Notes under the pieces: model-generated | Databases searched by the model: none | The model's input: the letters and a program-made list of their open reading frames with translations, nothing else | Told to the model about the DNA's origin: nothing | Assembly: GCA_001418405.1 (NCBI GenBank) | Contig: LIQL01000130.1 | Coordinates: 1-64,000 of the forward strand | Length of the DNA: 64,000 nucleotides | Reading direction: 5' to 3' | Origin: Streptomyces diastatochromogenes | Lineage (GTDB): Bacteria; Actinomycetota; Actinomycetes; Streptomycetales; Streptomycetaceae | In this document: in pieces, positions 50,693 to 64,000 of the stretch | How positions within the stretch are numbered: the stretch's first letter is position 1 | How the letters are laid out: each line of letters starts with the position of its first letter | Made by a program: the position numbers and the translations under genes

Positions 50693-50740
50693 CCGTACGC
50701 ACCGCCGGGAGAGGTTCGGCCCTCGGTAGCCTTTCTCCTC

Positions 50741-51178
50741 ATGACGCGTGCTTGGATCTTGCCGGTGTTGTTGGTGCTCTGCGGCTCGGTCATTGCGACC
50801 GGGCAGTTCCTCAGCGGGTCTCCCATCGCGGCCGCAACACTGCTGTTGCTGTTCGTGCTGCTCGCAGCGGTGAACTCGCCGCTGGCCTTTCCCAGGTCGA
50901 CCGGTGCCTCCGACGCACAGCGCCGTAGCGCGGCCGATGGCCGGCCGATCGTCTACTGGCGTCCGGGCTGCACGTACTGTCTCCGCTTGCGCCTCCGCTT
51001 GGGCCGCCACGCCCGCCAGCTGCATTGGGTCAACATCTGGCGTGATCCGGCGGGAGCGGCAACGGTGCGGGCGGCCAACGACGGCAACGAGACCGTGCCG
51101 ACCGTCGTCGTGGCCGGCCGGCCGCACACCAACCCCGATCCCGCGTGGGTGCGTGAACAGCTCTCCCGCCCCGCTTGA
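50741..51178 (+). CDS. Membrane-anchored glutaredoxin-like protein
   Basis: A 145-residue protein with two N-terminal membrane helices (residues about 4-21 and 27-46) and a soluble glutaredoxin-fold part from about 65. The redox motif is VYWRPGCTYCLRLRLRLGRH, a CxxC pair of the mycoredoxin type, followed by HWVNIWRDPAGAATVRAANDG and the cis-Pro segment NETVPTVVVAGRPHTNPDPA. In actinobacteria such proteins reduce mycothiol-mixed disulfides. Membrane anchoring suggests a role on the inner face of the membrane. Two genes later begins the MarR/hydrolase pair. Confidence 0.85.
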   Translation: MTRAWILPVLLVLCGSVIATGQFLSGSPIAAATLLLLFVLLAAVNSPLAFPRSTGASDAQRRSAADGRPIVYWRPGCTYCLRLRLRLGRHARQLHWVNIWRDPAGAATVRAANDGNETVPTVVVAGRPHTNPDPAWVREQLSRPA

Positions 51179-51551
51179 ACAAGAGCGGTGCCCCAGCCGA
51201 GGGCGACGGCGTGGGAAGCTCCACGTCCATCTCCGCCTGGCCGGACCACGGAGCAGGCCCCGGCGGGGGCGCCGTTGACCAGCTCTCCAGCCGTAGGGAG
51301 GCCCGGATGACTTGCGAGGGGACCTGTAGATAGACCATGCCGGGCGCCGAGACCAGCCACCTCGATAAGTCCGCGTTCGGGGTGTGGGTGTCCACACTGG
51401 TGTCGACCAGCCCGAAGATGCGGTGGTTCGGGGAGACCGTGGTCTCGAACGCGTCCAGGAGCCTGCTCAACTGCGCACCTCTCAGGGCTGATCGGGGTCG
51501 AGCGAAACCTAACAACACCGCAGAGGTCGAGGGGCGGGGCCTTCGTGCCAC
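51179..51551 (-). pseudogene. Probable truncated hypothetical gene
   Basis: The minus strand reads from a possible TTG at about 51470 (AGAGG before it) or ATG 51551: SRLLDAFETTVSPNHRIFGL, VDTSVDTHTPNADLSRWLVS, APGMVYLQVPSQVIRASLRL and QAEMDVELPTPSPSAGAPLL. That is a coherent, compact protein start, but past 51190 the frame degenerates and enters the antisense of the glutaredoxin-like gene. The C-terminal part seems lost. The rest of this 436-base gap holds nothing else. Confidence 0.45.
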
Positions 51552-51614
51552 GCATACACCGCATCCCGCTCCGACGACCCGAACCGGATGGCGACCGGGG
51601 CGCCAGTCAGCAGG

Positions 51615-52097
51615 TCAGCCGGTGGGTGTGCCGACCTGATCGCGTTCGAGCGTGCCGCGCAGGGTCGACAGGGCCTGCGCGACTGCCGACAGGGCGGGGG
51701 CGTCCAGGGCGTCTCCGAGGAGCTCGGCCAGGCCGCCCGTGACGGTCCGTTCCGACTCCTCGACGAGCCGCGCGCCGTCGTCGGTCAGGGCCAGCAGGGA
51801 GGACCTGCGGTCCGCCGGGTTCGGCCGACGAGCGGCCCAACCGTGCTTCTCCAGGCGGTCGATGCCCTTGCTGGTCGCCCCGACGCCGATGGCGAACTCG
51901 GCGGCGAGGTCCGCCACCCGGCATCCGGGGTGGTCGCGCAGGTAGCTCAGGAACTCGTACTGCGAGGTGACGATCCCGTGCCGCTCGCGGAGACGGTCGT
52001 TGAGGGCGTTGTACAGGCGCGTCTCGCACCGGACCAGGTCGGCGAACAGTCCGGAGAAGTCAGCTGCGGCGCGCTCTCCGCTCGATGTATATTCCAC
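51615..52097 (-). CDS. MarR-family regulator
   Basis: A 160-residue MarR protein with GTG start at 52097. The winged helix spans about 40-110: HGIVTSQYEFLSYLRDHPGC, RVADLAAEFAIGVGATSKGI, DRLEKHGWAARRPNPADRRS and SLLALTDDGARLVEES. The start was placed at GTG because homology begins there and the divergent operator overlaps it. It diverges from the alpha/beta-hydrolase gene at 52141, which is probably its target. The ligand is unknown, likely a phenolic acid (inferred from the family). Confidence 0.88.
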   Translation of the reverse strand: MEYTSSGERAAADFSGLFADLVRCETRLYNALNDRLRERHGIVTSQYEFLSYLRDHPGCRVADLAAEFAIGVGATSKGIDRLEKHGWAARRPNPADRRSSLLALTDDGARLVEESERTVTGGLAELLGDALDAPALSAVAQALSTLRGTLERDQVGTPTG

Positions 52098-52105
52098 GGC
52101 ATATA
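52088..52105. promoter_or_regulatory. Candidate MarR operator
   Basis: TATAT-tccacggc-ATATA, a dyad in the AT-rich gap between the MarR and hydrolase genes that overlaps the MarR start codon. Confidence 0.5.
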
Positions 52106-52140
52106 GTGTACAGGAAGCTACTTCTGGCAGGAGTATGTCC

Positions 52141-53091
52141 ATGAGCAGGGAACAGCGCATCCGAGTCGACGAGATCCTGCGGCAGCCAGGCGCCGGGGGA
52201 CCCCGGGCAGTCGAGGAACTCCGGGCCGGCTTCCGGCAGTTGATGGCCCAGATGATCGTGCCCCACAGCAGCATCCGCACCGCGCCGACGACGCTCGGCG
52301 ACCGGCCCGCGCTGCGCGTCGAGCCGAGGAGGGCGTCGGACCGAGGAGCGGACGCGGGCCCCGACGCCGGGACGATCCTGTACTTCCACGGCGGCGGCTG
52401 GGTCTTCGGCTCGCCCGAGACCGCCCTGTCGCTGACCGGGAACCTCGTCGCCAGGACCGGCCTAGCGGCGTACTCGCTGGACTACCGGCTCGCCCCCGAA
52501 CACCCCTTCCCGGCCGCGATCGAGGACGGCCTGAGCGCCTACCGGGCCCTCCTCGACCGCGGCGAGGATCCCTCGGCCATCGTCGTCGCGGGCGACTCCG
52601 CCGGCGGCGGCCTCGCCGTCACCACCTGCCTCGCCGCCCGGGACGCGGGCCTTCCGCTGCCCGCCGCCCTCCTCGCCTTCTCCCCAGGCACCGACGCCAC
52701 CCGGACCGGCGCAAGCATGGACACCAAGGAAGACATCGACCCGATCTTCACCCGTGCGGCCCTCGAACACACCGGAGCCATGCACCTCGCCGGCGCCGAC
52801 CCGCGCCAGCCCCTGCTGAGCCCGGCCGTCCACGCCGACCTGACCGGCCTTCCCCCGATGCTGATCCAAGTCGGCACCAACGAGATGCTGCTGGACGACT
52901 CCACCCGCCTGGCCGCACGGGCGAGCGCGGCGGGCGTGGACGTCATCCTCGACGTCACCGCCGACGTGCCGCACGTGTTCCAGTCGTTCGCCGGCGTCCT
53001 CGACGAGGCGGACGAGGCGTTGGACCGTGCCGCCCTCTTCCTGCGCCAGCGGATCAGGGGCGGAGGCGGCCCGCGGACGTCGGTCGGGTAG
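52141..53091 (+). CDS. Alpha/beta-hydrolase (hormone-sensitive lipase type)
   Basis: A 316-residue esterase. The oxyanion motif is TILYFHGGGWVFGSPETALS (HGGG), the nucleophile GDSAGGGLAVTTCLA (Ser about 147), the acid is probably in the DVTADVP/DEAD region, with His in ADVPHVFQSFAGV. LDYRLAPEHPFPAAIEDGL is the HSL-family signature. ATG 52141 has AGGAG seven bases upstream. Esterase activity on short-chain or aromatic esters is expected. The divergent MarR gene probably controls it. Confidence 0.92.
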   Translation: MSREQRIRVDEILRQPGAGGPRAVEELRAGFRQLMAQMIVPHSSIRTAPTTLGDRPALRVEPRRASDRGADAGPDAGTILYFHGGGWVFGSPETALSLTGNLVARTGLAAYSLDYRLAPEHPFPAAIEDGLSAYRALLDRGEDPSAIVVAGDSAGGGLAVTTCLAARDAGLPLPAALLAFSPGTDATRTGASMDTKEDIDPIFTRAALEHTGAMHLAGADPRQPLLSPAVHADLTGLPPMLIQVGTNEMLLDDSTRLAARASAAGVDVILDVTADVPHVFQSFAGVLDEADEALDRAALFLRQRIRGGGGPRTSVG

Positions 53092-53147
53092 GGGCGGGCG
53101 GCGAGATGCACAAGCGGAAGGACTCCTACGAGTAGTGCGGATGATCT

Positions 53148-53165
53148 TTCACTGAGTACGGTGAA
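53148..53165. promoter_or_regulatory. Short inverted repeat in the gap before the second hydrolase
   Basis: TTCAC-tgagtacg-GTGAA, 56 bases after the previous stop codon and about 205 before the next start. It could be a weak terminator hairpin or operator. Confidence 0.3.
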
Positions 53166-53370
53166 CCATCAGATGGCGGGCGGCTGTTCGTAGGTCGCCT
53201 CGTGGTTCCGCGCTCGCCCGTTGGCGCTTGCCCTGCACGAAAACACCTCTGCGGCCAGGAAGGTGCCCCGAGGAACGACGTCTCGTTCCCCGGCCGCGAG
53301 GCGGTGCGCGGCGCCGAACGGGGCAAGCGTGCACCGCAGACGCCGCAGAGGCCAGAAAGTGAGCAGACAG

Positions 53371-54219
53371 ATGCAACCGACGTTCGTACTGGTTCACGGA
53401 TCCTTCGCGAACTCCTTCTCCTTCGCACCACTCCAAGCCGAACTCGGCCTCCTCGGCCACCGCTCCGTCGCCGTTGACCTGCCAGGCCACGGGTTCGCCG
53501 CGACGTTCCCACGCGCCTACCAGGCACCGCAGGACCTCGAAGGGCTCGCCACCACGCCTGGGGCCATCAAGGGCGTCACGCTCGCCGACACCGCCGCGCA
53601 CCTCATCGGGACGTTGGAGCGGGCCAAGCGGAACGGGCCCGTCATCCTGGTCGCCCACAGCCGTGGCGGCATGACGGCCACCGTCGCGGCCAACCAGCGG
53701 CCCGACCTGATCGACCGCATCGTCTACGTCTCCGCCTGGTGCCCCGTCGACCTCGACGTCAGCGCCTACTATGCCGAGCCCGAGATGGCCACGGTCGACT
53801 CCACAGGCATAGCGTCGGCGATGGTCGGCAATCCCGCCGAGCTCGGGCTGTTGCGCGCCAACTTCCGCACTGCCGAGCCCGGCGTACTCGCGGCCTTCAA
53901 GGCAGCCTTCCTCGCCGACGGGACGGACGAGGAGTTCATGGTCTTCCTCAACACCTTTCAGCCCGACGAGAGCCTCGACGTCGGCACTTGCGACGACCGG
54001 GCGCAGGCCGACACCTGGGGCCGGATCCCCAAGGTGTACGTCCGGCTCACCGAGGACACCAGCGTGCCGCTCGCCATGCAGGACCGGATGATCCGCGAGG
54101 GCGACGCGCTGACACCGGAGAACCCCTACGACGTCCGTACGCTCACGAGCAGCCACCTGAAGTGGCTGGTCGACCCGGCACCGGCGGCCCGGCTCCTGGG
54201 CGAACTCGCCGAACTCTAG
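53371..54219 (+). CDS. Alpha/beta-hydrolase (esterase/hydroxynitrile-lyase-like)
   Basis: A 282-residue hydrolase. It opens PTFVLVHGSFANSFSFAPLQ, then VDLPGHGFAATFP; the nucleophile elbow is PVILVAHSRGGMTATVAANQ (Ser about 98); the acid and His lie in VYVRLTEDTSVPLAMQDRMI and TLTSSHLKWLVDPAPAARLL. The pattern resembles salicylate/plant-type esterases (HNL-like) more than dehalogenases. The start at ATG 53371 fits the first strand. An upstream GTG in another frame was rejected. No regulatory neighbour is obvious. Confidence 0.88.
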   Translation: MQPTFVLVHGSFANSFSFAPLQAELGLLGHRSVAVDLPGHGFAATFPRAYQAPQDLEGLATTPGAIKGVTLADTAAHLIGTLERAKRNGPVILVAHSRGGMTATVAANQRPDLIDRIVYVSAWCPVDLDVSAYYAEPEMATVDSTGIASAMVGNPAELGLLRANFRTAEPGVLAAFKAAFLADGTDEEFMVFLNTFQPDESLDVGTCDDRAQADTWGRIPKVYVRLTEDTSVPLAMQDRMIREGDALTPENPYDVRTLTSSHLKWLVDPAPAARLLGELAEL

Positions 54220-54335
54220 CCTTCGCCTGCCGGATCGCGATCGGATGCAGATGACGAGAGCGGCGGCGGTGACGACGCCGAGGTGGACGTCCCTGCCGGC
54301 TCTCTCCAACGTGTTGCGATCCTCGTACCGTCCCT
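54220..54335 (-). pseudogene. IS5-like transposase remnant
   Basis: On the minus strand GKGRYEDRNTLERAGRDVHLG and VVTAAALVICIR resemble the C-terminal end of IS5-group transposases: the Y-x2-R-x3-E signature (RYEDRNTLE) is present, but the usual K/Y helix that should follow is missing, as if an internal piece was deleted. No terminal inverted repeats or target duplication could be identified. The remnant borders the hexamer repeat at 54337. Confidence 0.45.
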
Positions 54336-54336
54336 T

Positions 54337-54390
54337 GCCGAAGCCGAAGCCGAAGCCGAAGCCGAAGCCCGAAGCCCGAAGCCCGAAAGC
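54337..54390. repeat. Microsatellite of GCCGAA units turning into GCCCGAA units
   Basis: Five copies of GCCGAA (54337-54366) are followed by GCCCGAA (54367-54373), GCCCGAA (54374-54380) and a degenerate third. The switch from 6- to 7-base unit implies a slipped base. It borders the transposase remnant. Confidence 0.85.
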
Positions 54391-54437
54391 CGTGCGCCGA
54401 GCGCGCGTCACCCGTGTTGCCTGAGGCAGCTTCTCAG

Positions 54438-54995
54438 CTACGCGGTGGGGAGGACCTGGGGAAGCGCCTTGGAGAACATCTCGTACGCATCCAACAGACT
54501 TTGCCGCTGCTCAAGCCAACGCTGGTGCAAGGCCGAGTCGATGTCCGCAACGTGCGAAGGGCTGCGCCGGAGAGCGTCTATGGCCTTGAGGGCCGTTTCG
54601 AGTCGTCGGAGGGCCGCACCCGAGATCTCCTCTAGCTCCGTCACCTGACACACCACCACGTTGTCGAAGTGCCCCCTCAGTACCTCCCCTTCCGCTCTCC
54701 GCAGCTTGTCGCGCACTTCGGTCAGCGCCCGTCTGTTGCGAAGGGCGTACATCAACTCATCGAGCGCATCGACGGCCTCCCCGAGCTTCACCTGGAAGGC
54801 GAGGCAGCTCTGCCGGCGCCATTCGTCATGCTGGAGGCGCCTCTCCTCCGTCTTCCCCTGCTTGTCCAACTCGCCTTGCTGAAGCAGCTGAACACGAGCC
54901 CCACGCGCTGCCAGCCCTGCCCCCGCAGCAGCACCTGCCGCACTCGCGAATCCCGCCAAGCCAGCGGCCCAGACCGCGGCGACCCCCTGATCCAT
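54438..54995 (-). CDS. Hypothetical coiled-coil protein
   Basis: A 185-residue protein with a hydrophobic N-terminus (VAAVWAAGLAGFASAAGAAAGAGLA, residues about 4-28) that may anchor it, then an all-helical charged region: QQGELDKQGKTEERRLQHDE, LGEAVDALDELMYALRNRRA, REKLRRAEGE-like stretches and LRRLETALKAIDALRR. It ends YEMFSKALPQVLPTA. Long heptad-like spacing suggests coiled coil. No family was recognised. It is a single gene between remnants and the TetR gene. Confidence 0.65.
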   Translation of the reverse strand: MDQGVAAVWAAGLAGFASAAGAAAGAGLAARGARVQLLQQGELDKQGKTEERRLQHDEWRRQSCLAFQVKLGEAVDALDELMYALRNRRALTEVRDKLRRAEGEVLRGHFDNVVVCQVTELEEISGAALRRLETALKAIDALRRSPSHVADIDSALHQRWLEQRQSLLDAYEMFSKALPQVLPTA

Positions 54996-55090
54996 GCACA
55001 GGATTTTGCCGTGTCGGTTGCGGGAACGGAAGCGAGTCGCGATCGACGGCCCGCGCAGATCAGGATGAGTCTGCGCTGAGAGGCGGCCAG

Positions 55091-55678
55091 TCAGTTGGCG
55101 GTCGAGGTGCCGATGCCGTGCAGCAGGGTCTCGACGACGCGGGTGGCGAGGGAGTCCAGGGCGGCGTCGGTGTCCGGGGCCTGTGAGGCGGCCTCGTGGA
55201 TCAGGGCGTAGTAGACGCGCCGCGCCCAGTCGAGATCGGTGTCGGGCGGGAGCACGCCGGCGTCGCGCAGGCGGACGAACAGCTGCGCGCACTGAGCGAG
55301 TACGTCGGCGTGGACGCGGGCGACCTCGGGGGCATCGGTGGGCAGGGCGCCCATGGCGAAGCCCCATCCGGTCTTCACGCGGAGCACGTTCGCGGTGACC
55401 TGGTAGAGCGCGACGGCGGGTGGGGCGGTCTGTGGCCGGGCGGCCTCGACGGCTTCGTGGAACCGCTGCGTCGCCCATGCGGCGAGCGCCGTGATCAATG
55501 CCTCCCGGGACGCGAACCGCCGGTGCACGGTGGTCCGTGCGACGCCTGCGGCCTCGGCGATCTGCTCCATCGTGGCCGCCGGGTTGGCGGACAGCACCTG
55601 CTCGCCGGCTTCGAGGATCGCGCGCACGGTCCGCTCGGTGTCGGCGCGCAGCGGTTTCGGGGAGGCGGGCGGCGCCAT
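55091..55678 (-). CDS. TetR-family regulator
   Basis: A 195-residue TetR regulator starting at ATG 55678 (GGAAGGACC upstream). The HTH spans about 16-60: TERTVRAILEAGEQVLSANP, TMEQIAEAAGVARTTVHRRF and ASREALITALAAWATQRFHE. The ligand-binding part ends with VETLLHGIGT. It diverges from the SDR gene at 55814 with a 135-bp AT-rich gap that contains an inverted repeat (55777-55792), so it probably represses the SDR gene. Confidence 0.92.
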   Translation of the reverse strand: MAPPASPKPLRADTERTVRAILEAGEQVLSANPAATMEQIAEAAGVARTTVHRRFASREALITALAAWATQRFHEAVEAARPQTAPPAVALYQVTANVLRVKTGWGFAMGALPTDAPEVARVHADVLAQCAQLFVRLRDAGVLPPDTDLDWARRVYYALIHEAASQAPDTDAALDSLATRVVETLLHGIGTSTAN

Positions 55679-55776
55679 GGGCGGGTCCTTCCAGGAGAAC
55701 GGCAACCGCAAGAGTACGTCAGAGAGGCAACTCAACCAAGACTTGCAACATCGATGACGCATGTTCTAGCTTTTCT

Positions 55777-55792
55777 GCATCATAAAAGATGC
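55777..55792. promoter_or_regulatory. Candidate TetR operator in the SDR promoter
   Basis: GCATC-ataaaa-GATGC, 22 bases before the SDR start codon, in an AT-rich patch with an ATGACGCATG element nearby. Confidence 0.55.
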
Positions 55793-55813
55793 GATCGGCG
55801 ATGGAGGAGCACC

Positions 55814-56596
55814 ATGGATCTGCAGTTGAACGGCAAGACCGCTCTGGTCACGGGCGCCAGTCGGGGTATCGGGCTGGCCGTCGTCCACGCCCTGGCAGCC
55901 GAAGGCGTGCGCGTGGTCGCCGCCGCCCGCACCCCCACCCCGGAACTGGCGGCGGCCGGCGCGATGCCGGTGGCGGCCGACCTGTCCGACCCCGCCACAG
56001 CCGCACGCCTGGTCACCGAGGCCGTCGCCGAACTGGGCGGCCTCGACATCCTGGTCAACAACGTCGGCGGCGGAGACGGCGGCCTCAACGGCGGCTTCCT
56101 GGACCTGACCGACGCCCAGTGGGACCAGGTGGTGGACCTGAACTTCTTCGCCACCGTCCGTGTCACCCGCGCCGCCCTGCCCGCCCTGGCGGCCGCCCGC
56201 GGTGCGATCGTCAACGTGTCGTCGATCGGGGCCCGCGTCCCGCACGGCGGCCCCGTCGCCTACACCACCGCCAAGGCTGCGCTCACCGCGTTCGGCAAGG
56301 CCCTGGCCGAGGAGTTCGGCCCGCAGGGGGTGCGGGTGAACACCGTCTCCCCGGGGCCGGTCCGCACTGACATGTGGGAGAGCCCGACCGGCTACGGCGC
56401 CGAACTCGCCACCGCCATGAGCATCCCCCACGCCGACCTCCTGGCCGGACTGCCGGCCGCGATGGGCATGCTCATCAACCGCCTCGTCGAACCCGACGAG
56501 GTCGCCTCCCTCGTTGCCTACCTGGCCTCGCCCCGCGCCGCCGCCACCACCGGCACCGACCACTTCATCGACGGCGGAGCCGTCAAAACCGCCTAG
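55814..56596 (+). CDS. Short-chain dehydrogenase/reductase
   Basis: A 260-residue classical SDR. The NAD(P)-binding motif is TALVTGASRGIGLAVVHALA (TGxxxGIG), DILVNNVGGGDGG is the NNxG motif, and the catalytic Ser, Tyr and Lys are in IVNVSSIGARVPHGGPVAYTTAK (Ser about 141, Tyr about 154, Lys about 158). FGPQGVRVNTVSPGPVRTDM is the substrate side. NADP preference is suggested by the Arg after the second strand (AAART). The RBS GGAGGA fixes the ATG. The reaction is oxidation or reduction of a hydroxyl/carbonyl; the substrate is unknown. Confidence 0.93.
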   Translation: MDLQLNGKTALVTGASRGIGLAVVHALAAEGVRVVAAARTPTPELAAAGAMPVAADLSDPATAARLVTEAVAELGGLDILVNNVGGGDGGLNGGFLDLTDAQWDQVVDLNFFATVRVTRAALPALAAARGAIVNVSSIGARVPHGGPVAYTTAKAALTAFGKALAEEFGPQGVRVNTVSPGPVRTDMWESPTGYGAELATAMSIPHADLLAGLPAAMGMLINRLVEPDEVASLVAYLASPRAAATTGTDHFIDGGAVKTA

Positions 56597-57148
56597 GAAA
56601 AGCCCTGTTCACCCTGGCTTGCCGCACAGGAACGAAGGGCCGGGCTCAGACGGTGCGCGGGCTCGTGGAGTACACCGTCTCCTGGCCTTCAGGGTGTCGA
56701 CGCCTTGCGTCGCCGCTACGAACGCCAGCCCCGAGCACTTCCGTGCGGCTGGGATGGCACGTTCTGCTGGGGCGCTCTCACCGGGCGGCGCCACTCCACG
56801 GGTTGGTGTATTTGGCGCCGTGGGCCTTGGGTGCTCTGCCGCGTCTGCCCGTTGGCTCGGCCGTGGGTGCGCGTCGCCCCGAATGAGGCTCCTGGCGGGC
56901 CTGCTGACGGCAAGACAGGTGTGGTGACCCCGGCCCACCCCCGTGGGGGCCGGGGTGATGCTGATCCTCTGTGGACGAGGGGGGTTCTGTCAATTAATTG
57001 GTGATCGATCTAGCCAACCCCTAGTCTTTTGACCGACTTGCCTCATTTGCGAGAGATGCTATTTCCAATTAATTGGAGACGCGGCTGCCGAGGCGCGTAT
57101 CGGCTCGCCTAGGATCCAGACCGTGTCGATACGAAAGCGGGAGTAGGA
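56597..57148. other. Intergenic region before the XRE-led quartet
   Basis: No gene is supported in these 552 bases. The first part (56600-56980) is GC-rich with coding-like but disrupted frames on both strands, probably decayed gene material. From 56985 the composition turns AT-rich and holds two identical CAATTAATTG palindromes, the promoter of the next operon. Confidence 0.5.
56991..57075. promoter_or_regulatory. Twin CAATTAATTG palindromes (XRE operator candidates)
   Basis: CAATTAATTG occurs at 56991-57000 and again at 57066-57075, exactly 75 bases apart. Both are flanked by G/T-rich bases (the second is extended to CCAATTAATTGG). Such a 10-bp AT-rich palindrome is very unusual in DNA of this composition. 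The spacing of about seven helical turns would suit DNA looping. The XRE gene begins 73 bases after the second copy. Confidence 0.75.
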
Positions 57149-57661
57149 GTGCAACCACCCGAGCAAGGGGGCGCGGCCGAACGGTTCGCTCAGCGGTTCA
57201 ACCGCTTGAACGAGTCGATCTACCCCGCGACGCAGGCGAGGCCGTACACCGAACAGGAAATCGCAGACCAGATCCAGATGTCGGTCAGTCAGGTCAACAA
57301 CCTGCGCAACGGCAGATCCGTGCCGCGCGGCGACCGGGCCATGAGGCTCGCCGCCCTCTACGGGGTTCGGCTCGACTACTTCTTCCTCCCGGACGACGCC
57401 GAGTACGTCAGGGAAGTGGAGCAGCATCTCCTCGCCATCGACGTGGAACGTCGCGGACTCCCTCAGATGCGAGCCAACCGGACGGCTGGCTCCGGCGGTG
57501 GCGCCGCCAGTGGCGCAGAGAGTCCGCTTGACGACGAGGTTCGGCACATCGCCGAAGGGTTGGCCGAACTGCCCAGTGAATTCCGCGACGTGGTCGGTAC
57601 GCTCGTCGACACGCTGCGCGAGCGCATGGGCCTGCAACCCCGCGGCAGGAGATCACGGTGA
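57149..57661 (+). CDS. XRE-type helix-turn-helix regulator
   Basis: A 170-residue regulator starting at GTG 57149 (GGAG upstream). HTH about 33-75: YTEQEIADQIQMSVSQVNNL, RNGRSVPRGDRAMRLAALYG; then an extension ending with a helical C-terminus (DDEVRHIAEGLAELPSEFRD, VVGTLVDTLRERMGLQPRG). It overlaps the next gene by four bases (GTGA), so both are translated together. It probably represses its own operon at the two palindromes, and the adjacent peptidase probably removes it. Confidence 0.88.
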   Translation: MQPPEQGGAAERFAQRFNRLNESIYPATQARPYTEQEIADQIQMSVSQVNNLRNGRSVPRGDRAMRLAALYGVRLDYFFLPDDAEYVREVEQHLLAIDVERRGLPQMRANRTAGSGGGAASGAESPLDDEVRHIAEGLAELPSEFRDVVGTLVDTLRERMGLQPRGRRSR

Positions 57662-58182
57662 ATCGGCCCGAAGTTGTGACGACGTGGCAGATACCAGAGG
57701 GTTGGGCTGGCGACATGGGAATCCGGGCTGAGCGACAGCGAGTGAGGAAGATCCTTCGCGATCTCGGACTACCCGCTCACCCCACCCTTCAGGAACTCTG
57801 CTCCGCCTACGAGCAGCGAACGGGGCGCACGCTGCACCTCATCGAACGCGAGGTCCGTCCCGGCGAACCCTCGGGTGAGTACGAACAGTATCTGGGCGAG
57901 GACCGCATCTACTACCCAAAGGGCACCAGCCTGGCGCACCAGGCCCTGGTGAAGTGCCATGAACTCGCCCATCTCCTCCTGCACCATGCGCCCCGTCACA
58001 ACGCCATCGATCCGGACGTCGTCCGGCGGGTCCTCGGGCGCTCCCACTACGCGGATCCGGCCGAACACGAAGCCGAGACGGTCGGCACGCTCCTCTACTT
58101 GGAGCTGAACCTCGAACCGGAGGACGGGGCGGCGGCACACATCGCGCCCGCGCTGATCCACCGGGAAGGGCGTCATGCCTAG
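57658..58182 (+). CDS. ImmA/IrrE-type zinc metallopeptidase
   Basis: A 174-residue protein with the zinc motif QALVKCHELAHLLLHHAPRH (HExxH at residues 101-105) and a third ligand in AEHEAETVGTLL (Glu about 137-140). This is the IrrE/ImmA (COG2856) family, whose members cleave a cognate XRE repressor upon a signal (ImmA in ICEBs1, IrrE in Deinococcus). GTG start, four-base overlap with the XRE gene; its end overlaps the following gene by eight bases. The arrangement XRE-ImmA is a standard repressor/protease pair. Confidence 0.88.
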   Translation: MNRPEVVTTWQIPEGWAGDMGIRAERQRVRKILRDLGLPAHPTLQELCSAYEQRTGRTLHLIEREVRPGEPSGEYEQYLGEDRIYYPKGTSLAHQALVKCHELAHLLLHHAPRHNAIDPDVVRRVLGRSHYADPAEHEAETVGTLLYLELNLEPEDGAAAHIAPALIHREGRHA

Positions 58183-59404
58183 CAAAGAGACCGCCTACGA
58201 CCTCGCGTACACGGTCGTGGGCCTGAGCCTCTACCTCCTGGCCCTCTACAAGGGGCGCGCCTGGCTCAGCGAACGGATCCCGAGCCTGCTCCTCATGACG
58301 GGGGCCGCACTGTCCGCCGGTAGCGGCTTCCTGGTGGCGGCGCCGCACAACTACCGGCTGATCGACCAGCTCGCGGGGATCTCGAACCTCGCCACGTACG
58401 TCGTCTACAGCGCTATCACCGTGTGCTGCGCCTTCTACCTCCTGATCGTGATGCTCTGGAAGGGCGCATCCGCCAATGGGGGCAGCTCCGCCACCTCTGA
58501 AGTCCGTAGGCAGGCGGAAATCGATCGCCTCCGCCGCGCCGCTCGTTGGGTTGCGCCCCTCTACGCCGTCATCCTCTTGCTGATGACGGCTCTCTTCTTC
58601 ACCGTAGAGCTACCGACCGGCGAAAGACCGCTGGACTTCGACACCACCTACGCCGAGCAACCCACCATCACGGCATTCCTGATGATCTATCAGGCGGGTT
58701 ACGGGCTCGGTATCTGGTCGATGGCCTATTTCGCGTGGCGGCACTCCCGCCGGATGACGGACCGGCTGCTCCGCACCAGTCTCACCTGCACGGCGATCGG
58801 CTGCGTCTTCGTCGCGATGTACGGCGTCTTGAAGATCATCGCCATTGTCGGCGTCAATGCCGGACTTCCCTCAATGGAGCCCATCAGCAACACCCTTGCC
58901 CCCGCGGCCGCTTCGGTGGGCGGCGACATCGTCCTGTACGGATGGGTGTACAGCGCGCTGAAGGCGCGCCGCCACCGCAACCAGGAGTTCCACGCCCTGG
59001 AGATACTCTGGAGGACGGTGACGCGGATAGACCCCGGCCTCATCCTGAAGAACCGGGTGCCGCGCTCGGAGTGGGGTCAGCAGGTCATGGCAGTCCGACG
59101 GGCCGGAGAGATCCGTGACGGTCAACTGTCCTTGCGCCCATGGGTCTCTCCCGACGTGGTGGACACGGCCAGGCGCATCGCGGAAGACGAGGACCTCCGG
59201 CCGTCACAACGCGAAGCGCTGGCGGCTGCCGCGGCGCTCCGTGCGGCGCTGCGGGCCAGGGAGGAGGGGACCGTCCCCTCCCCGGCGTGCGACCATCTCC
59301 CGGGCATAGAGGTCCCTCCGCACGCCGAGCGGCAGCACCTCATCATGGTCGGGAAATACCTGCACAGCGCACTTGTCGACAAGGTCCTGGCCGCCTCCCC
59401 ATGA
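58175..59404 (+). CDS. Seven-helix MAB_1171c/DUF6545-type membrane protein
   Basis: A 409-residue protein. Seven helices at about 6-22, 32-54, 66-90, 125-148, 163-190, 205-232 and 243-265 (YTVVGLSLYLLALYKG, ITVCCAFYLLIVMLW, WVAPLYAVILLLMTALFFTV, CVFVAMYGVLKIIAIVGV, VGGDIVLYGWVYSAL). A cytoplasmic C-terminal domain of about 140 residues follows: HALEILWRTVTRIDPGLILK, LSLRPWVSPDVVDTARRIAE and REALAAAAALRAALRAREEG. This is the DUF6545 C-terminus of MAB_1171c-type 'putative transporter' proteins. It looks more like a receptor or sensor than a transporter. It overlaps the peptidase gene. Confidence 0.8.
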   Translation: MPSKETAYDLAYTVVGLSLYLLALYKGRAWLSERIPSLLLMTGAALSAGSGFLVAAPHNYRLIDQLAGISNLATYVVYSAITVCCAFYLLIVMLWKGASANGGSSATSEVRRQAEIDRLRRAARWVAPLYAVILLLMTALFFTVELPTGERPLDFDTTYAEQPTITAFLMIYQAGYGLGIWSMAYFAWRHSRRMTDRLLRTSLTCTAIGCVFVAMYGVLKIIAIVGVNAGLPSMEPISNTLAPAAASVGGDIVLYGWVYSALKARRHRNQEFHALEILWRTVTRIDPGLILKNRVPRSEWGQQVMAVRRAGEIRDGQLSLRPWVSPDVVDTARRIAEDEDLRPSQREALAAAAALRAALRAREEGTVPSPACDHLPGIEVPPHAERQHLIMVGKYLHSALVDKVLAASP

Positions 59405-59463
59405 CGCGCACAAGACGGAATGACGAGATGCATCCAATGAGCGAAAAAGCCGGGTGACCTTCA

Positions 59464-60264
59464 GTGCCATGGACAATTGAGGAAGAGCAGGAAGCCCAAG
59501 CGGTCTACCGGGAAATGGCGCTCACGCACTTCCCCGGCGATGTGAAGCTCGGACTGAACCTCGGCTTCTACCGCACCTTCGCCGTCCCCTCCATCGCCCG
59601 CGTGCTGGCCGGCACGGGAAAGCTGACCAAGCAGCCGCGCGTTCGGGCGAAGGCCACCGGCGAGCTCATGTACACCCTCATCGAGCACGGACTGGACACC
59701 GGCGAGGGGGAGGCGGCAGTACAGAAGCTGATCCGGCTTCACTCGGGCCTTGCCGTCTCCAACGAGGACTTCGTCTACGTACTGGCAGCCTTCTGCATCA
59801 CGCCCATCCGCTGGATCGACACCCACGGTTGGCGTCGAACGAACCAGACCGAGAAGAGAGCGACCCACACGTTCTACTCACTCCTGGCCGAGCGGATGGG
59901 CATCACGGACGTCCCCGACTCCTTCGAGGAATTCACCGCATGGATGGACGCATTCGAAGTCAGGACGTTCCGCAGCACCGCAGAAGGGCACAGCCTCGTC
60001 ACGGCGACCCGGTCCCTGCTGTCCGATCGCATGCCCCGACTCCTCTCACCGCTGGCCAACGGGATCTTCACGTGCCTTCTCGGAGAGCGACTCCGCAGGA
60101 CCTTTGAACTGCCGCGTCCCCGCCTGCTCGTGAGAAGTGCGGTTTCCGCCGCACTGTGGGGTCGACGCCTCCGCATGCGCCGCGCCCACACCCGCGGCCT
60201 TGCCTCTCCTCACCCACACGGCGATCCCTCGGAAGAGCCCGTGGGCACAGGGACAGCTAACTGA
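59464..60264 (+). CDS. MpaB/Lcp-like oxygenase-family protein
   Basis: A 266-residue helical protein starting at GTG 59464. The core HSGLAVSNEDFVYVLAAFCI, THGWRRTNQTEKRATHTFYS, LLAERMGITDVPDSFEEFTA and the late MDAFEVRTFRSTAEGHSLVT match the ER-bound oxygenase MpaB/rubber-oxygenase (DUF2236) family. Its heme ligand and catalytic residues are not clearly complete here, so activity is open. It follows the membrane protein by 60 bases on the same strand and is probably part of the same operon. The C-terminal 40 residues are variable. Confidence 0.72.
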   Translation: MPWTIEEEQEAQAVYREMALTHFPGDVKLGLNLGFYRTFAVPSIARVLAGTGKLTKQPRVRAKATGELMYTLIEHGLDTGEGEAAVQKLIRLHSGLAVSNEDFVYVLAAFCITPIRWIDTHGWRRTNQTEKRATHTFYSLLAERMGITDVPDSFEEFTAWMDAFEVRTFRSTAEGHSLVTATRSLLSDRMPRLLSPLANGIFTCLLGERLRRTFELPRPRLLVRSAVSAALWGRRLRMRRAHTRGLASPHPHGDPSEEPVGTGTAN

Positions 60265-60617
60265 GCGGCCCTGACGAAGCCGTCAGCCAGGCACCTCAAG
60301 CCACCTTGTGGGGGGGGGCGAGGCCAGGCGCCGCCACCGGGTGGTCCGTGCCCATCCGTCATCATGTCAGGCACCCGTCATCGGACCGGGGCCGACTTCT
60401 GACACCGCCGCCGACGATTGCCCCGTGATCCGAGGTGCCAACCGGGAACAGTCAGCCCGGGCGGCACTGTTGCATCCATCGAGGGACCGGCGCCGCACGG
60501 GCGGGGGACACGGAGACCACAAGATCATTCCCCCCCCCGGAGAGGACCGGGCCCCGGGAGCGCGGCACGCCCGCCGCGCATTCGGACTGACACGTATTTC
60601 CGCAGGAGGACTGTTAC
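60265..60617. other. Intergenic region with homopolymer runs
   Basis: No gene was found. A run of nine G (60310-60318) and a run of nine C (60530-60538), in inverted relation 212 bases apart, are the notable features. The end holds the AGGAGG site of the next gene. Confidence 0.5.
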
Positions 60618-61451
60618 ATGACTGACCGGCCCTTGACGCTCATGGCGGTGCACGCCCACCCCGACGACGAAGCCACCGGAACCGGAGGAGTCCTCGCGCG
60701 GTACGCGGCGGAGGGCATCCGCACGGTGCTCGTGACGTGTACCGACGGCGGTTGCGGTGACGGACCCGGGGGTGCCAAGCCGGGCGATCCCGGGCACGAC
60801 CCGGCGGCCGTCGCCTCGATGCGCCGTCAAGAACTCCAGGCGAGCTGTGACGTCTTGAAGGTCAGCGATCTGGAGATGCTGGACTACGCCGACTCGGGAA
60901 TGACGGGCTGGCCGAGCAACGACGCCCCCGGATCCTTCTGGCAGACCCCCGTGGAGGAAGGCGCCGGCCGACTCGCGGAACTCATGCGGCACTACCGACC
61001 CGATGTGGTCGTCACCTACGACGAGAACGGCTTCTACGGTCACCCCGACCACATCCAGGCACACCGCATCACGATGGCGGCGTTGAAGATGACCGAGCTG
61101 ACGCCGAAGGTGTACTGGACGACGATGCCCCGCTCGGGGATGCAGCGGTTCGGGGAGATCATCCGCGAGTTCCACCCGGACATGCCGGAGCCGGACCCCG
61201 CCGAGGCCGCCGCGATGGCCAACATCGGTCTCCCCGACGAGGAGATCACCACGTGGGTGGACACCACCGCGTTCAGCGGCCAGAAGTTCGACTCGCTGGC
61301 CGCGCACGCCAGTCAGGGAGAGAACATCTTCTTCCTCAAGATGGGCAAGGAGAGGTTCGGTGAGTTGATGGGCATGGAGACCTTCGTCCGCGTCCAGGAC
61401 GCCACCGGCGCGACCGTACCCGAGAACGACCTCTTCGCCGGACTGCGCTGA
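60618..61451 (+). CDS. Mca/LmbE-type deacetylase (PIG-L family)
   Basis: A 277-residue PIG-L/LmbE protein. The zinc motif is MAVHAHPDDEATGTGGVLAR (AHPDDE), the middle NGFYGHPDHIQAHRITMAAL provides further ligands, and MLDYADSGMTGWPSND plus late PDEEITTWVDTTAFSGQKFD complete the fold. Close similarity in this pattern and length points to mycothiol S-conjugate amidase (Mca), which cleaves toxin-mycothiol adducts; MshB is the alternative. The RBS AGGAGG precedes the ATG by 9-10 bases. It stands alone. Confidence 0.85.
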   Translation: MTDRPLTLMAVHAHPDDEATGTGGVLARYAAEGIRTVLVTCTDGGCGDGPGGAKPGDPGHDPAAVASMRRQELQASCDVLKVSDLEMLDYADSGMTGWPSNDAPGSFWQTPVEEGAGRLAELMRHYRPDVVVTYDENGFYGHPDHIQAHRITMAALKMTELTPKVYWTTMPRSGMQRFGEIIREFHPDMPEPDPAEAAAMANIGLPDEEITTWVDTTAFSGQKFDSLAAHASQGENIFFLKMGKERFGELMGMETFVRVQDATGATVPENDLFAGLR

Positions 61452-61534
61452 TCCGCTCGCCCGACCGGGGCCCGGGAAGGCCCATCGACCGCAGGGCGCG
61501 ATCGAGCATGCTCACACACCCGGGGGCTTGTCCA

Positions 61535-61560
61535 CGCGGGTTGCGCTCCGGCAACCCGCG
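61535..61560. terminator. Perfect bidirectional hairpin between convergent genes
   Basis: CGCGGGTTGC-gctccg-GCAACCCGCG, a 10-bp perfect stem with a six-base loop, lies between the Mca-like gene and the LuxR gene stops. Confidence 0.75.
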
Positions 61561-61634
61561 ACCGGGCCGGCAGGCCCTCGCCGGCAGCGCGGACAGGGCT
61601 GCGGACAGGCCGGCCCCGTGGTCCCTGAGCGCCA

Positions 61635-63983
61635 TCAGCTCCCGGCGGGTTCGTCGCGCTGCTCGTACGTCCACAGCGCCAGTTGCGTGCGCGAGGTGAG
61701 CCCGAGCTTGCCCAGGATGCGTTCGACGTGGTTCTCCGCGGTGCGCTGCGCGATCGTCAGGCGCGCCGCGATGTCCTTGTTGGTCAGACCCTCGGCGACC
61801 AGCTCCGCGACCTGGCTCTCGCGCCGCGTCAACCCCGGCACCACCCCGGCCGCGTCGTCCAGTACGTAGGCCATCGCCTCGTCCACGGTGGCGCGCGCCC
61901 CGCGGCGGAAATCCCGCTCGAAGGCCGCGGCGGACAACGCCTCCCGCACCGCGGCCTCGAAGCGCAGATGCTGCGCGCGCATGAACGGCACCGAGCCCAG
62001 CCGCCCGCCCAGCGACTCCCACAACAGGTGCAGCACGCCCAGGAGCCGGGCCGCGCGCCGCGGGGCGTCCTGGGTGCTCCAGGCGATGACCTCCACACAC
62101 ATGGCCAGGCCCCACCAGTCCTGGAACGGGCGCAGCCGGGCGACGGCCGCCCTGGCATGCGCGATCGCGTCGGCGGGCGCGCCCGCCCGCCGGGCCAGCA
62201 GGGCGCGGGCGAGCAGAGCCATGCCGTACAGCCAGGACTCGTCGTGCGCGCGGGCAGCCGCCTCGACCTCGCCGCACGCCTCGTCGGCCGCGGCGACCTC
62301 ACCTCCGTAGGCGTGCGCGAGGGCGAACTTGACCCGGCATTCGAGGGCCGCGTCCAGGCAGTCCTGCGCGCGGAACTCGGTGCCCGCCCGCGCGAACAGC
62401 TCGGCGGCGCTCGCGAAGTCCTCGCGCCACACGGCGAGGATCCCCTGATGGTGCCACACCCAGGCCGACTCCCGCCGGTGGCCGCCCCGCCTGGCCGCGG
62501 CCTCGCACCCGGCGAGCGCACGCTGCACATCGGCGTCCGGGTCGCCCTGCAGGATGCCCAGGTACGTCTCGGTGACGAGGGCGTGCACGCGGACGGCGGG
62601 ATCCGGGCCGGCCGCGTCCTCGCCGTCGTCCTTCGGATCGTCGGCGGCGAGCAACTGCGACAGCCAGCGGCGGCCCTCGGACAGCAGACCCGCGGTGATC
62701 CAGTAGTGCCGGGGCGACACGGCCAGGGCCAGACCGGCCCGCGCCTGCCCGGGCCGTTCCAGACAGAACTCCAGGGCCGCGCGCAGGTTCGGATGTTCCA
62801 GGCGCAGCCGCGTGAACCATTCGACCTGCCGGGGCCCGAACCACTCCCGCCCGGCCCGAGCGGTCAGTTCCGCGTACCGGTCCCGATGCCGGCCGCGCAG
62901 CGCGTCGAGCAAGCCGGACGCGGCCAGCCGCTCGTGCCCGTACTCCCGTACCGTCTCCAGCATGTGGTAGCGCGAACGTCCCTTCTCCTGGCGGCAGTTG
63001 ACGATCGACCTGGCGACAAGGGCATCGAGGGTGTCGAGCAGGGCGCCGGGCGGCAGCTCGGCGTCCGTGCAGACCCGTTCGAGGCTCTCCAGGTCGAAGC
63101 CGCCGCGGAACACCGAGGCCCGCGCCCACAGCAGCCGCTCGCGCCCCGTGCACAGCTCGTGGCTCCAGTCGATCAGCGCGCGCAAGGTGCGCTGCCGGTC
63201 GGCGGCGACGCGGCTGCCCCCGGTCAGCAGCGCGAACCGGTCCGTGAGCCGCTCCAGGATCTCCGGCGGCGTCAGGCTCCGGACGCGGGCCGCCGCCAGC
63301 TCGATCGCGAAGGGCAGCCCGTCCAGCCGGCGCACGAGCTCGACGACGGCAGCGGCGTCGGACTCGGACACGGCGAAGCCCGGCAGCACGGCGGCGGCCC
63401 GATCGGCGAACAGCGCGACGGCCGGATTGCCGCTCACCGCGCGCACGCCGCCGTGACCCGCGTCCGCGTCCGGCACCGGCAACGGCTCCACGGAGAAGAC
63501 CTGCTCGCCCGCTATGCCGAGCGGCTGCCGGCTGGTCGCCAGGACGCGCAGCCCGGGCGCGCCCCGCAGCAGTGCGTCGGCGAGACGGGCGCACGCTTCG
63601 ATCAGGTGCTCGCAGTTGTCCAGGACCAACAGGGCGCGCCGCTCGCGCAGCCGGGCGGTGAGGACGGCCGTCGCGTCGGCGCCGGGGTGCGCCGGGGGCG
63701 CCGTGTCGAGGACGCCGAGGACGCTCGGTGCGAGCAACTCGGGGTCCTGTAGGTCGGCGAGTTCGGCGACGTACACGCCGTCGGGGAAGGCGGAGCGCGC
63801 CGCGTTCGCCGCCACGCGCTGCGCCAGCCGGGTCTTGCCCACACCGCCGACCCCGCTGAGCGTGACCAGGCGCGCGCCGGAGAGCAGCCGGGCGATCCGG
63901 GCCGTCTCCGCCCGCCGCCCGATCAGCGGCGTCAGTTCACCGCCGAGGCCGACGAACGCCCCCGTGACCGCCCCCGTTTCCAT
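61635..63983 (-). CDS. ATPase-LuxR regulator of the AfsR/LAL-like type
   Basis: A 782-residue regulator. An NB-ARC-like ATPase (1-330) with Walker A in LVTLSGVGGVGKTRLAQRVA, Walker B in ALLVLDNCEHLI, and the sensor motif TSRQPLG; then a winged helix region (LPFAIELAAARVRSL, IDWSHELCTGRERLLWARA, MLETVREYGHERLAASG); TPR-like helical repeats (about 420-690); a C-terminal LuxR HTH (LTRRESQVAELVAEGLTNKD, IAARLTIAQRTAENHVERIL, GKLGLTSRTQLALWTYEQ). These large ATP-dependent activators often control secondary metabolism or redox genes; the target is unknown. Confidence 0.9.
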   Translation of the reverse strand: METGAVTGAFVGLGGELTPLIGRRAETARIARLLSGARLVTLSGVGGVGKTRLAQRVAANAARSAFPDGVYVAELADLQDPELLAPSVLGVLDTAPPAHPGADATAVLTARLRERRALLVLDNCEHLIEACARLADALLRGAPGLRVLATSRQPLGIAGEQVFSVEPLPVPDADAGHGGVRAVSGNPAVALFADRAAAVLPGFAVSESDAAAVVELVRRLDGLPFAIELAAARVRSLTPPEILERLTDRFALLTGGSRVAADRQRTLRALIDWSHELCTGRERLLWARASVFRGGFDLESLERVCTDAELPPGALLDTLDALVARSIVNCRQEKGRSRYHMLETVREYGHERLAASGLLDALRGRHRDRYAELTARAGREWFGPRQVEWFTRLRLEHPNLRAALEFCLERPGQARAGLALAVSPRHYWITAGLLSEGRRWLSQLLAADDPKDDGEDAAGPDPAVRVHALVTETYLGILQGDPDADVQRALAGCEAAARRGGHRRESAWVWHHQGILAVWREDFASAAELFARAGTEFRAQDCLDAALECRVKFALAHAYGGEVAAADEACGEVEAAARAHDESWLYGMALLARALLARRAGAPADAIAHARAAVARLRPFQDWWGLAMCVEVIAWSTQDAPRRAARLLGVLHLLWESLGGRLGSVPFMRAQHLRFEAAVREALSAAAFERDFRRGARATVDEAMAYVLDDAAGVVPGLTRRESQVAELVAEGLTNKDIAARLTIAQRTAENHVERILGKLGLTSRTQLALWTYEQRDEPAGS

Positions 63984-64000
63984 GAGCGGTCATCTTACGG

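What the first reader, a model, noticed from the sequence alone, without database searches (positions are those of the whole stretch)
57149..60264. Coupled XRE / ImmA-IrrE peptidase / seven-helix DUF6545 membrane protein / MpaB-like oxygenase quartet
Four genes run head to tail. The first two overlap by 4 bases (GTGA), the second and third by 8, and the fourth follows after 60. The HTH protein plus an HExxH peptidase is the classical repressor/protease switch. The membrane protein has a large soluble C-terminal domain, like a receptor, and the oxygenase-like protein could make or alter a lipid or hydrophobic signal. The order suggests signal production or sensing at the membrane, then peptidase activation, then loss of the XRE repressor and induction of the operon. 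Members are known as families, but I know of no described function for the set as a unit.
Basis: partly seen in the sequence, partly recalled or inferred. Interest (0 to 1): 0.86.

Follow-up and report, generated by a model that had tools for sequence, protein, structure and literature searches.

The report
Membrane-sensor protease switch with swappable oxygenase
Four neighbouring genes in a soil bacterium (a DNA-binding regulator, a protein-cutting enzyme, a seven-helix membrane protein and an oxygenase) form one conserved unit, and in related bacteria the first three stay together while the enzyme at the end is exchanged, which suggests a plug-in system for sensing and oxidising some greasy molecule.

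Summary
XRE > ImmA-like > MAB_1171c/DUF6545 > MpaB-like was found in eight genomes, one in another family. In Streptomyces sp. CB02959 just the promoter plus the four genes align (90.5%); the flanks do not. dN/dS is 0.04-0.18 for all four. New here: (1) The 'XRE' is EspR-family (profile E 4.8e-37), closer to EspR than to ImmR. (2) Two CAATTAATTG palindromes 75 bp apart upstream of it have no other exact copy in the held 9.1-Mb draft genome and are kept while their spacer diverges. (3) The membrane protein is 7-TM, predicted N-out/C-in, DUF6545 in the cytoplasm. (4) In 107 non-random neighbourhoods the next gene is an FAD oxidoreductase (35), cytochrome P450 (33) or MpaB (6, plus one my caller missed), against 2 of 480 other genes. 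So peptidase plus 7-TM protein, usually with the regulator, is the core, and the oxygenase a swappable output. Best reading: a self-contained switch in which a membrane ligand triggers cleavage of the regulator and induces an oxygenase acting on a hydrophobic compound. Gene unit: near certain. Mechanism: inferred, about 0.45. The families are known; six searches found no paper on the set.

The parts
56898..60208 (+). stretch shared with Streptomyces sp. CB02959 (90.5% identity; flanks do not align)
   Evidence: blastn; alignments of both edges
56927..56956 (.). G+C-rich inverted repeat at the left edge of the cassette, possible terminator or insulator hairpin (weak: z -1.31)
56991..57000 (.). 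palindrome CAATTAATTG, candidate operator 1
   Evidence: 0 in 100 shuffles; only 2 places in the 9.12-Mb draft, reversed control 0; kept in L121
57066..57075 (.). palindrome CAATTAATTG inside TCCAATTAATTGGA, candidate operator 2, 75 bp from the first
57110..57115 (+). TAGGAT, candidate -10 box by eye, kept in L121 (inference; no clear -35, consensus scan found no promoter)
   Evidence: alignment
57149..57661 (+). EspR-family regulator: N-terminal HTH_3, C-terminal helical domain
57658..58182 (+). ImmA/IrrE-like zinc peptidase; HELAH at 57958-57972, likely third ligand E136 at 58063-58065
58175..59404 (+). MAB_1171c-family 7-TM protein, predicted N-out/C-in; TM about residues 7-25, 38-56, 75-93, 126-144, 165-183, 206-224, 241-259
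58976..59368 (+). DUF6545 domain of the 7-TM protein, predicted cytoplasmic
59464..60264 (+). MpaB/Lcp-family (PF09995) haem-oxygenase-like enzyme; R61 (59644-59646), T65 (59656-59658), H93 (59740-59742)

Best explanation
A self-contained, ligand-gated oxygenase operon. SHOWN BY SEQUENCE: an EspR-family regulator, a zinc peptidase with intact motif, a 7-TM protein with a DUF6545 domain (predicted N-out/C-in), and an exchangeable enzyme, mostly oxidising (here MpaB-type), are inherited together; the promoter region carries two identical palindromes with no other exact copy in the draft genome. INFERRED: (1) the regulator binds both palindromes, bridges them and holds its own promoter shut; (2) a hydrophobic molecule, possibly an isoprenoid or other unsaturated lipid, binds the 7-TM protein, which through DUF6545 activates or releases the peptidase; (3) the peptidase cuts the regulator, probably near its C-terminal dimerisation helices, so the DNA bridge falls apart; (4) the operon is induced and the oxygenase cleaves or oxidises the inducing molecule, or converts it to an outgoing product, ending the response. 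Regulator, peptidase and 7-TM protein are the general switch, the enzyme the output that decides the chemistry.
For: Unit: quartet in the window, L121 (= L122), L123, L124, L125, L126, L141 and in L223 of another family; identity to CB02959 limited to the block; dN/dS 0.04-0.18. Regulator: EspR profile match 4.8e-37; passages of PMC3315491 describe EspR bridging, loss of dimerisation on removing ten C-terminal residues, and two EspR sites flanking the espR promoter. Operators; other lineages carry their own repeated palindromes upstream of XRE, AACGATCGTT x2 in L170/L175, AACTATAGTT x2 in L186 (repeated 9-mer in L187). Peptidase: HExxH in 101 of 102 copies next to MAB. Topology. Output slot: FAD 35, P450 33, MpaB 6 (+L122) of 107 loci, against FAD 1, P450 1, MpaB 0 of 480 other genes. 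Oxygenase: R/T/H in 10 of 10; best solved relative trans-anethole oxygenase 8s1j, 1.6e-9. Hydrophobic substrate: squalene/phytoene-synthase-like gene near the 7-TM gene in L049, L156, L161 (Pfam checked in L156 only); PAP2-like genes, under the Pfam cut-off, in other genera.
Against: No experiment; no step after gene order and motifs is shown. Single-palindrome upstream regions in some lineages (L052 group, L124/L125, L141) and no repeated perfect palindrome in the P450-type loci examined weaken a universal looping model. Operator 2 lies upstream of the guessed -10 box, a place that also fits an activator. The regulator gene was called directly before the peptidase in only 73 of 107 loci, and anywhere in the stretch in 81. 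21 of 107 loci have the next gene on the opposite strand. One peptidase (L153) lacks HExxH as called. The window peptidase is under the Pfam M78 cut-off, and its family profile found no M78 structure. Amidase, HAD hydrolase and AraC partners are not oxygenases. NCBI names the 7-TM family 'putative transporter'. The L141 MpaB protein gave no Pfam hit and the L223 7-TM protein is under the NF042915 cut-off. Both AlphaFold models were too poor to use.
Confidence: 0.45

Rival explanations
1. Regulated biosynthesis and export: the 7-TM protein is a transporter of a small hydrophobic product made or finished by the oxygenase, and regulator plus peptidase are only its pathway switch.
For: NCBIfam calls the family a putative transporter; a paper on MAB_1171c itself reports about half the biofilm mass in its knockout and lists it as an integral membrane transporter protein (passages); a squalene/phytoene-synthase-like gene stands nearby in L049/L156/L161.
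Against: 7 TM with a soluble C-terminal domain and no transporter-family hit at Pfam beyond a weak DUF2301; no profile match to a solved transporter below E 0.1; the unit usually has a single enzyme, few for a pathway.
Confidence: 0.25
2. Activator logic: the EspR-like protein activates the operon from sites upstream of the -10 box and the peptidase switches it off.
For: TAGGAT at 57110-57115 lies downstream of both palindromes and is kept in L121.
Against: The promoter position is guessed, not mapped, and the consensus scan found none; passages read say that EspR downregulates its own expression in certain conditions and has sites flanking its promoter.
Confidence: 0.15
3. A mobile toxin-antitoxin-like or defence cassette: XRE is the antitoxin side, the peptidase or oxygenase the toxic side.
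For: Cassette with flanks that do not align; relatives of the 7-TM protein on 32 plasmid records; Makarova et al. 2009 proposed XRE-COG2856 pairs as part of three-component TA-like systems (passages).
Against: PADLOC gives only weak hits, none for the 7-TM or MpaB protein; 28 of those 32 plasmids are rated non-mobilizable; P450, FAD and MpaB enzymes are not toxins that I know of (recalled); orthologous-looking loci recur in many genomes.
Confidence: 0.1
4. Chance neighbours: triad and MpaB gene merely lie together.
For: MpaB-family matches are common in the genus (93 of 150 genomes), and 10 stretches fetched around such genes hold no triad gene by tblastn.
Against: Quartet in eight genomes; -4 to +83 bases before the MpaB gene in L123, L124, L125, L126 and L141, 59 in the window; cassette identity runs to within 19 codons of the MpaB gene's end; the 8 triad-borne MpaB proteins and two lone ones lie apart from 29 lone ones on the tree (100/99).
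Confidence: 0.03

Closest known systems
ImmA-ImmR of ICEBs1 and IrrE-DdrO (XRE regulator plus HExxH peptidase)
   Same: Adjacent HTH regulator and small zinc peptidase with overlapping genes; DdrO structures appear far down the regulator profile's hits (E 1.7e-4 and above). ImmA is said to be needed for proteolytic inactivation of ImmR (passages of PMC2701414).
   Different: Regulator is EspR-type; a 7-TM protein and an enzyme are built in; the window peptidase is under the Pfam M78 cut-off. Cleavage is not shown here.
EspR, mycobacterial nucleoid-associated regulator
   Same: Profile match over nearly the full length, 4.8e-37; paired sites at its own promoter, as reported for espR (passages).
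   Different: EspR binds 165 loci (passages); here no further exact operator copy is in the draft genome, and the gene is tied to a peptidase.
MAB_1171c family NF042915 / DUF6545
   Same: Above both curated cut-offs.
   Different: Known as a named family; the one paper found (passages) gives knockout phenotypes, no mechanism in what I read.
MpaB / Lcp / trans-anethole oxygenase / Nro1 haem oxygenases
   Same: PF09995; R, T and H of the DUF2236 core kept.
   Different: Lcp's distal lysine K167 is not at the matching place (Ala64, Lys one earlier); apart from most lone Streptomyces MpaB proteins on the tree.
CapH-CapP of CBASS (recalled; only capP seen in a call)
   Same: Regulator plus peptidase logic (recalled); weak capP hit, E 0.0026.
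   Different: No defence effector or cyclase was recognised among the four proteins.

Membership tests
ImmA/IrrE peptidase (Pfam Peptidase_M78) | HExxH plus downstream acidic zinc ligand | tested here: met
   H101, E102, H105, E136 invariant in 15 of 15; HExxH in 101 of 102 copies next to MAB
ImmA/IrrE peptidase (Pfam Peptidase_M78) | score above Pfam gathering cut-off | tested here: not met
   18.4 bits against 22; hence called ImmA/IrrE-like only
ImmA-ImmR type switch | peptidase cleaves the neighbouring XRE regulator | not testable with these tools
   needs protein work
ImmA-ImmR type switch | regulator closest to ImmR | tested here: not met
   EspR 2.7e-6 against 0.016 for the ICEBs1 Xre protein 7t8i; family profile 4.8e-37 for EspR, 7t8i not among its hits up to 0.01
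EspR family | N-terminal HTH plus C-terminal dimerisation domain along the length | tested here: met
   profile positions 8-141 of 154 on 4ndw 19-152
EspR family | bridging of DNA by dimers of dimers | not testable with these tools
   paired palindromes are suggestive only
MAB_1171c family NF042915 and DUF6545 | scores above curated cut-offs | tested here: met
   140.5 against 100; 75.9 against 24.4
MAB_1171c family NF042915 and DUF6545 | transport activity implied by the family name | not testable with these tools
   none
MpaB/Lcp oxygenases PF09995 | curated score | tested here: met
   49.6 against 23; L125 45.2 and L223 36.7 pass; L141 gave no Pfam hit
MpaB/Lcp oxygenases PF09995 | conserved R/T/H of DUF2236 (R164, T168, H198 in LcpK30) | tested here: met
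   R61, T65, H93 invariant in 10 of 10; aligned to R, T and H in 8s1j; the same pattern by eye in the L223 translation. Nro1 is reported with R in place of T (passages), so T is not universal
MpaB/Lcp oxygenases PF09995 | distal axial lysine as in Lcp | tested here: not met
   Ala64 at the place three after R61; so not an Lcp sensu stricto
MpaB/Lcp oxygenases PF09995 | haem b and C=C cleavage | not testable with these tools
   none
Type II toxin-antitoxin / defence system | recognised toxin or defence gene in the unit | tested here: not met
   PADLOC gives only weak RmrA and capP hits, none for the other two proteins; no toxin library was searched

The most novel reading that the evidence does not exclude
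A large actinobacterial class of one-operon chemoreceptor switches: a 7-TM receptor signals across the membrane by triggering intracellular proteolysis of an EspR-type DNA-bridging regulator, each copy with its own private operator and its own plug-in enzyme (P450, flavoenzyme, MpaB haem oxygenase, PAP2-like phosphatase, amidase). This would be a membrane-receptor-to-protease signalling mode apart from two-component and sigma/anti-sigma systems, and would give XRE-peptidase pairs a sensor and an enzyme output.
Probability: 0.35. Interest if true: 0.82.

Novelty: new variant of a known kind. Interest (0 to 1): 0.64.

Why it matters
XRE-peptidase pairs were proposed in 2009 to belong to three-component systems whose regulatory targets still had to be found (Makarova et al., passages). 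This unit supplies candidates for both ends: a membrane sensor upstream and an enzyme output. Because the switch stays while the enzyme changes between unrelated oxygenase folds, ligand class and output can be tested by comparison, and the private operator gives a ready reporter. It would also turn many 'MAB_1171c family putative transporter' genes into testable receptors, and be a source of inducible oxygenases.

Tried and rejected
Considered and rejected: PIG-L gene 60618-61451 as a fifth member (no match in the CB02959 stretch; in 12 fetched relatives, two of them cut short by contig ends, its block, about 60442-61493, is the only part that aligned to window 45001-64000). Empty-site test of the insertion: not possible for the same reason. 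A broad family alignment could not be used to search viral contigs, and the MpaB alignment found no relative there. AlphaFold of the 7-TM protein (mean pLDDT 41.5) and of MpaB (45.7) were too poor for a fold search, so none was made. Sigma-70 scan found no promoter. The edge hairpin is not significantly stable (z -1.31). The profile search of the 7-TM family against solved structures gave nothing credible.

Limits of the counts: neighbourhoods were chosen from rows similar to the window's 7-TM protein, plus a few places from the DUF6545 search, and are not a random sample; many look orthologous, so counts are not independent events (tree: 67 rows, 12 label changes against a shuffled mean of 31.2; P450 and FAD 5 changes each, MpaB 2; several long branches flagged). 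Genes were called by my own composition script, which misplaces starts and missed the CB02959 MpaB gene. The count steps over tandem 7-TM genes (L181, L183, L191). Dropped before the count: L032 (same place as L126), L142-L151 (fetched around MpaB), L050, L056, L203 (no MAB called). The P450 and FAD profiles were built from the downstream genes; a motif control on the same 480 other genes gave 1 P450 motif and 2 N-terminal Rossmann motifs, where 31 of 33 P450-labelled genes had the haem motif but only 6 of 36 FAD-labelled genes met my strict Rossmann pattern (the eight misses printed show truncated starts or other glycine patterns; the 36 include one, in L053, that one search counts as opposite strand). 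The FAD family has only weak Pfam/NCBIfam hits. The MpaB tree used 31 lone proteins, best matches first, 21 of them as tblastn segments.

Literature: searches for MAB_1171c (1 paper), DUF6545 (0), and combinations with XRE, ImmA, MpaB, P450 and Streptomyces (listings) showed no description of the set; only open PMC papers are held, and I read passages of five papers only.
Full report
OBSERVATION. Families: HTH_3; a HExxH protein whose Peptidase_M78 score (18.4) is under the Pfam cut-off (22); NF042915 MAB_1171c family with a C-terminal DUF6545; PF09995 MpaB/Lcp catalytic domain. The window is G000:C36 of a 9.12-Mb, 937-contig draft genome; the relative found by name is Streptomyces sp. CB02959.

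IS IT A UNIT? Against the CB02959 stretch (L121) only window 56898-60208 aligns, at 90.5% identity (window 53001-64000 was compared); the edges fall upstream of the promoter region and 19 codons before the end of the MpaB gene. The PIG-L gene that follows has no match there, and its own block, about 60442-61493, was the only part of window 45001-64000 that aligned in 12 fetched relatives. dN/dS between the two copies is 0.153, 0.044, 0.112 and 0.181 for the four genes in order, which speaks for purifying selection on all four. The quartet order is also in L123 (G353), L124 (G297), L125 (G225), L126 (G028; regulator by tblastn) and L141 (G356) of the same genus, with -4, -4, 4, -4 and 83 bases before the MpaB gene, and in L223 (G692, another family of the class), where the longest ORFs of all four genes overlap (its 7-TM protein is a weak family member, 42 bits). 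With the window and CB02959 (L122 lies inside L121) this makes eight genomes. On a tree of 39 MpaB proteins the 8 borne by triads plus two lone ones (L142, L143) lie on one side (100/99) and 29 lone genus members on the other; L223 and L141 are long branches. Ten stretches fetched around lone MpaB genes hold no triad gene by tblastn.

THE SWITCH IS THE CORE, THE ENZYME IS EXCHANGED. In 107 neighbourhoods with a called 7-TM gene, the peptidase gene lies directly before it in 102, and the regulator gene directly before that in 73. The next gene after the 7-TM gene is: FAD oxidoreductase 35, P450 33, MpaB 6, amidase 4, squalene/phytoene-synthase-like 1, other 3, opposite strand 21, same strand but over 400 bases away 2 (one is L122, whose MpaB gene is present by tblastn), end of stretch 2. 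Among 480 other genes of the same stretches the same profiles found FAD 1, P450 1, MpaB 0, synthase-like 2 and PIG-L 1. Representatives were checked: P450 PF00067, SQS_PSY PF00494, Amidase PF01425 and PF09995 are over their cut-offs; the FAD type has only weak hits (PF12831 under, PF04820 just over the cut-off), and its NCBIfam hits are all under cut-off, as are those of the P450 (best: pentalenolactone synthase; for the FAD protein QhpG). On a tree of 67 of the 7-TM proteins enzyme types cluster but change repeatedly: 12 changes in all against a shuffled mean of 31.2. In 20 stretches of 18 genomes from other genera, 14 have regulator, peptidase and 7-TM gene head to tail as called; proteins related to the PAP2-like one of L167 stand in L206, L208, L209, L211, L217 and twice in L218, with PAP2 scores under the Pfam cut-off where tested (27.1 and 22.5 against 27.2). 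The 7-TM family matches in 50 of 246 genomes of the class, 34 over cut-off, in 21 of 103 genera; DUF6545 alone in 8 of 198 genomes of the phylum, with one sub-cut-off ring in a control genome. The own genome has three further DUF6545 genes; at all three places (L040, L164, L165) a peptidase gene lies before the 7-TM gene.

THE REGULATOR. A profile of 13 regulators matches EspR over nearly its full length at 4.8e-37; DdrO and other XRE proteins follow far behind. The passages read of PMC3315491 say that EspR is a two-domain dimer, that loss of ten C-terminal residues prevents dimerisation, that dimers bridge separate sites, and that two EspR sites flank the espR promoter. Here CAATTAATTG occurs at 56991 and 57066, and at no other place in the draft genome; the reversed control finds none, and 100 shuffles of the window give none. 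A looser 14-base pattern with up to two mismatches gives five other places, all with two mismatches, about as many as the reversed control's four. In L121 both sites are unchanged while much of the DNA between them has diverged. Among 73 upstream regions examined, other lineages have other palindromes: AACGATCGTT twice in L170 and L175, AACTATAGTT twice in L186 and a repeated 9-mer of it in L187, single GCCACAGCTGTGGC in the L052 group and some FAD loci, CACGATCGTG in L124 and L125, GGTCAAGAATTCTTGACC in L141. P450-type loci show no repeated one; some have a single palindrome (TGTTCGCGAACA in L036 and L046, TGATCGATCA in L045, L155 and L157), many none. So several switches seem to have private addresses. 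That the regulon is this operon alone is inferred from exact matches only.

THE PEPTIDASE. Four putative zinc-site residues are invariant in 15 of 15, HExxH in 101 of 102 copies beside MAB. The family profile found no M78 structure; the best were M48-type zincins at E 0.036 and above.

THE MEMBRANE PROTEIN. Averaged hydropathy over 15 relatives gives seven segments, and K+R per loop alternates 0.2, 3.1, 1.4, 4.4, 0.9, 5.1, 0.5, 21.3, which predicts N-out/C-in with DUF6545 inside. The outer loop between TM4 and TM5 is acidic (D+E 3.7, K+R 0.9) with a PLDFDT-YA-like stretch in the consensus. No credible solved relative. The only paper found that names MAB_1171c reports about half the biofilm mass in its knockout in M. 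abscessus (passages).

THE OXYGENASE. R61, T65 and H93 are invariant in 10 of 10 aligned proteins and align to R, T and H of trans-anethole oxygenase 8s1j. The review PMC6311187 (passages) gives R164, T168 and H198 of LcpK30 as nearly invariant among 495 Lcp homologues and H198 as proximal haem ligand. PMC12724181 (passages) proposes C=C cleavage of nitrile rubber by the MpaB-family Nro1 and cites cleavage of a farnesyl chain by MpaB. So a haem enzyme that cleaves or oxidises an unsaturated hydrophobic molecule is the natural expectation; the substrate is unknown.

MECHANISM. The operator has no other exact copy, so the simplest output of the switch is the operon itself; its only non-regulatory product is the oxygenase. 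I therefore favour: sensing of a hydrophobic compound by the 7-TM protein, activation of the peptidase, cutting of the EspR-like bridge, induction, and oxidation of the compound. Whether the compound is self-made or foreign is open. Rivals are listed with their odds.

KNOWN OR NEW. Each family is known. XRE-COG2856 pairs were proposed in 2009 as part of three-component systems, and finding the targets of such regulators was named as of interest (passages of PMC2701414). The searches showed no paper describing the triad with a 7-TM protein or the exchange of oxygenases. I file it as a new variant of the XRE-peptidase switch, with an EspR-type regulator and a built-in membrane protein and enzyme.

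Noticed in passing
window 60618-61451 (+): PIG-L / MshB-like deacetylase just downstream; 85-93% identical DNA in 15 same-genus relatives, there as its own block and not part of the cassette.
   Followed up: yes
window 55091-55678 (-): TetR regulator with a weak ScbR-family hit (E 1.3e-6, under cut-off) beside a short-chain dehydrogenase; possible butyrolactone-type regulator.
   Followed up: no
window 61635-63983 (-): 782-aa ORF with a P-loop-like start (GVGGVGKT) and a LuxR-like C-terminus by eye, in the style of large ATP-binding regulators.
   Followed up: no
L156 2493-4783 (-), also L049 and L161: 7-TM gene followed by an FAD enzyme and a squalene/phytoene-synthase-like gene (synthase-like alone called in L049), a clue to an isoprenoid substrate.
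   Followed up: partly
L170 and L175 upstream of XRE; L186 and L187: Repeated palindromes (AACGATCGTT, AACTATAGTT) unlike the window's, suggesting orthogonal operator addresses per lineage.
   Followed up: partly
L186 5942-7513 and L051, L159, L187: 7-TM gene followed by an amidase instead of an oxidising enzyme.
   Followed up: partly
L142 4974-5747 and L143 4977-5750: Lone MpaB genes on the triad side of the MpaB tree; in L142 next to a PucR-type regulator and a sodium:solute symporter. Possible loss of the triad or source of the enzyme.
   Followed up: partly
L216 and L217, upstream divergent 350-aa ORF: A larger protein matching the peptidase profile (E 1.8e-5 in L216) divergent from the triad.
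   Followed up: no
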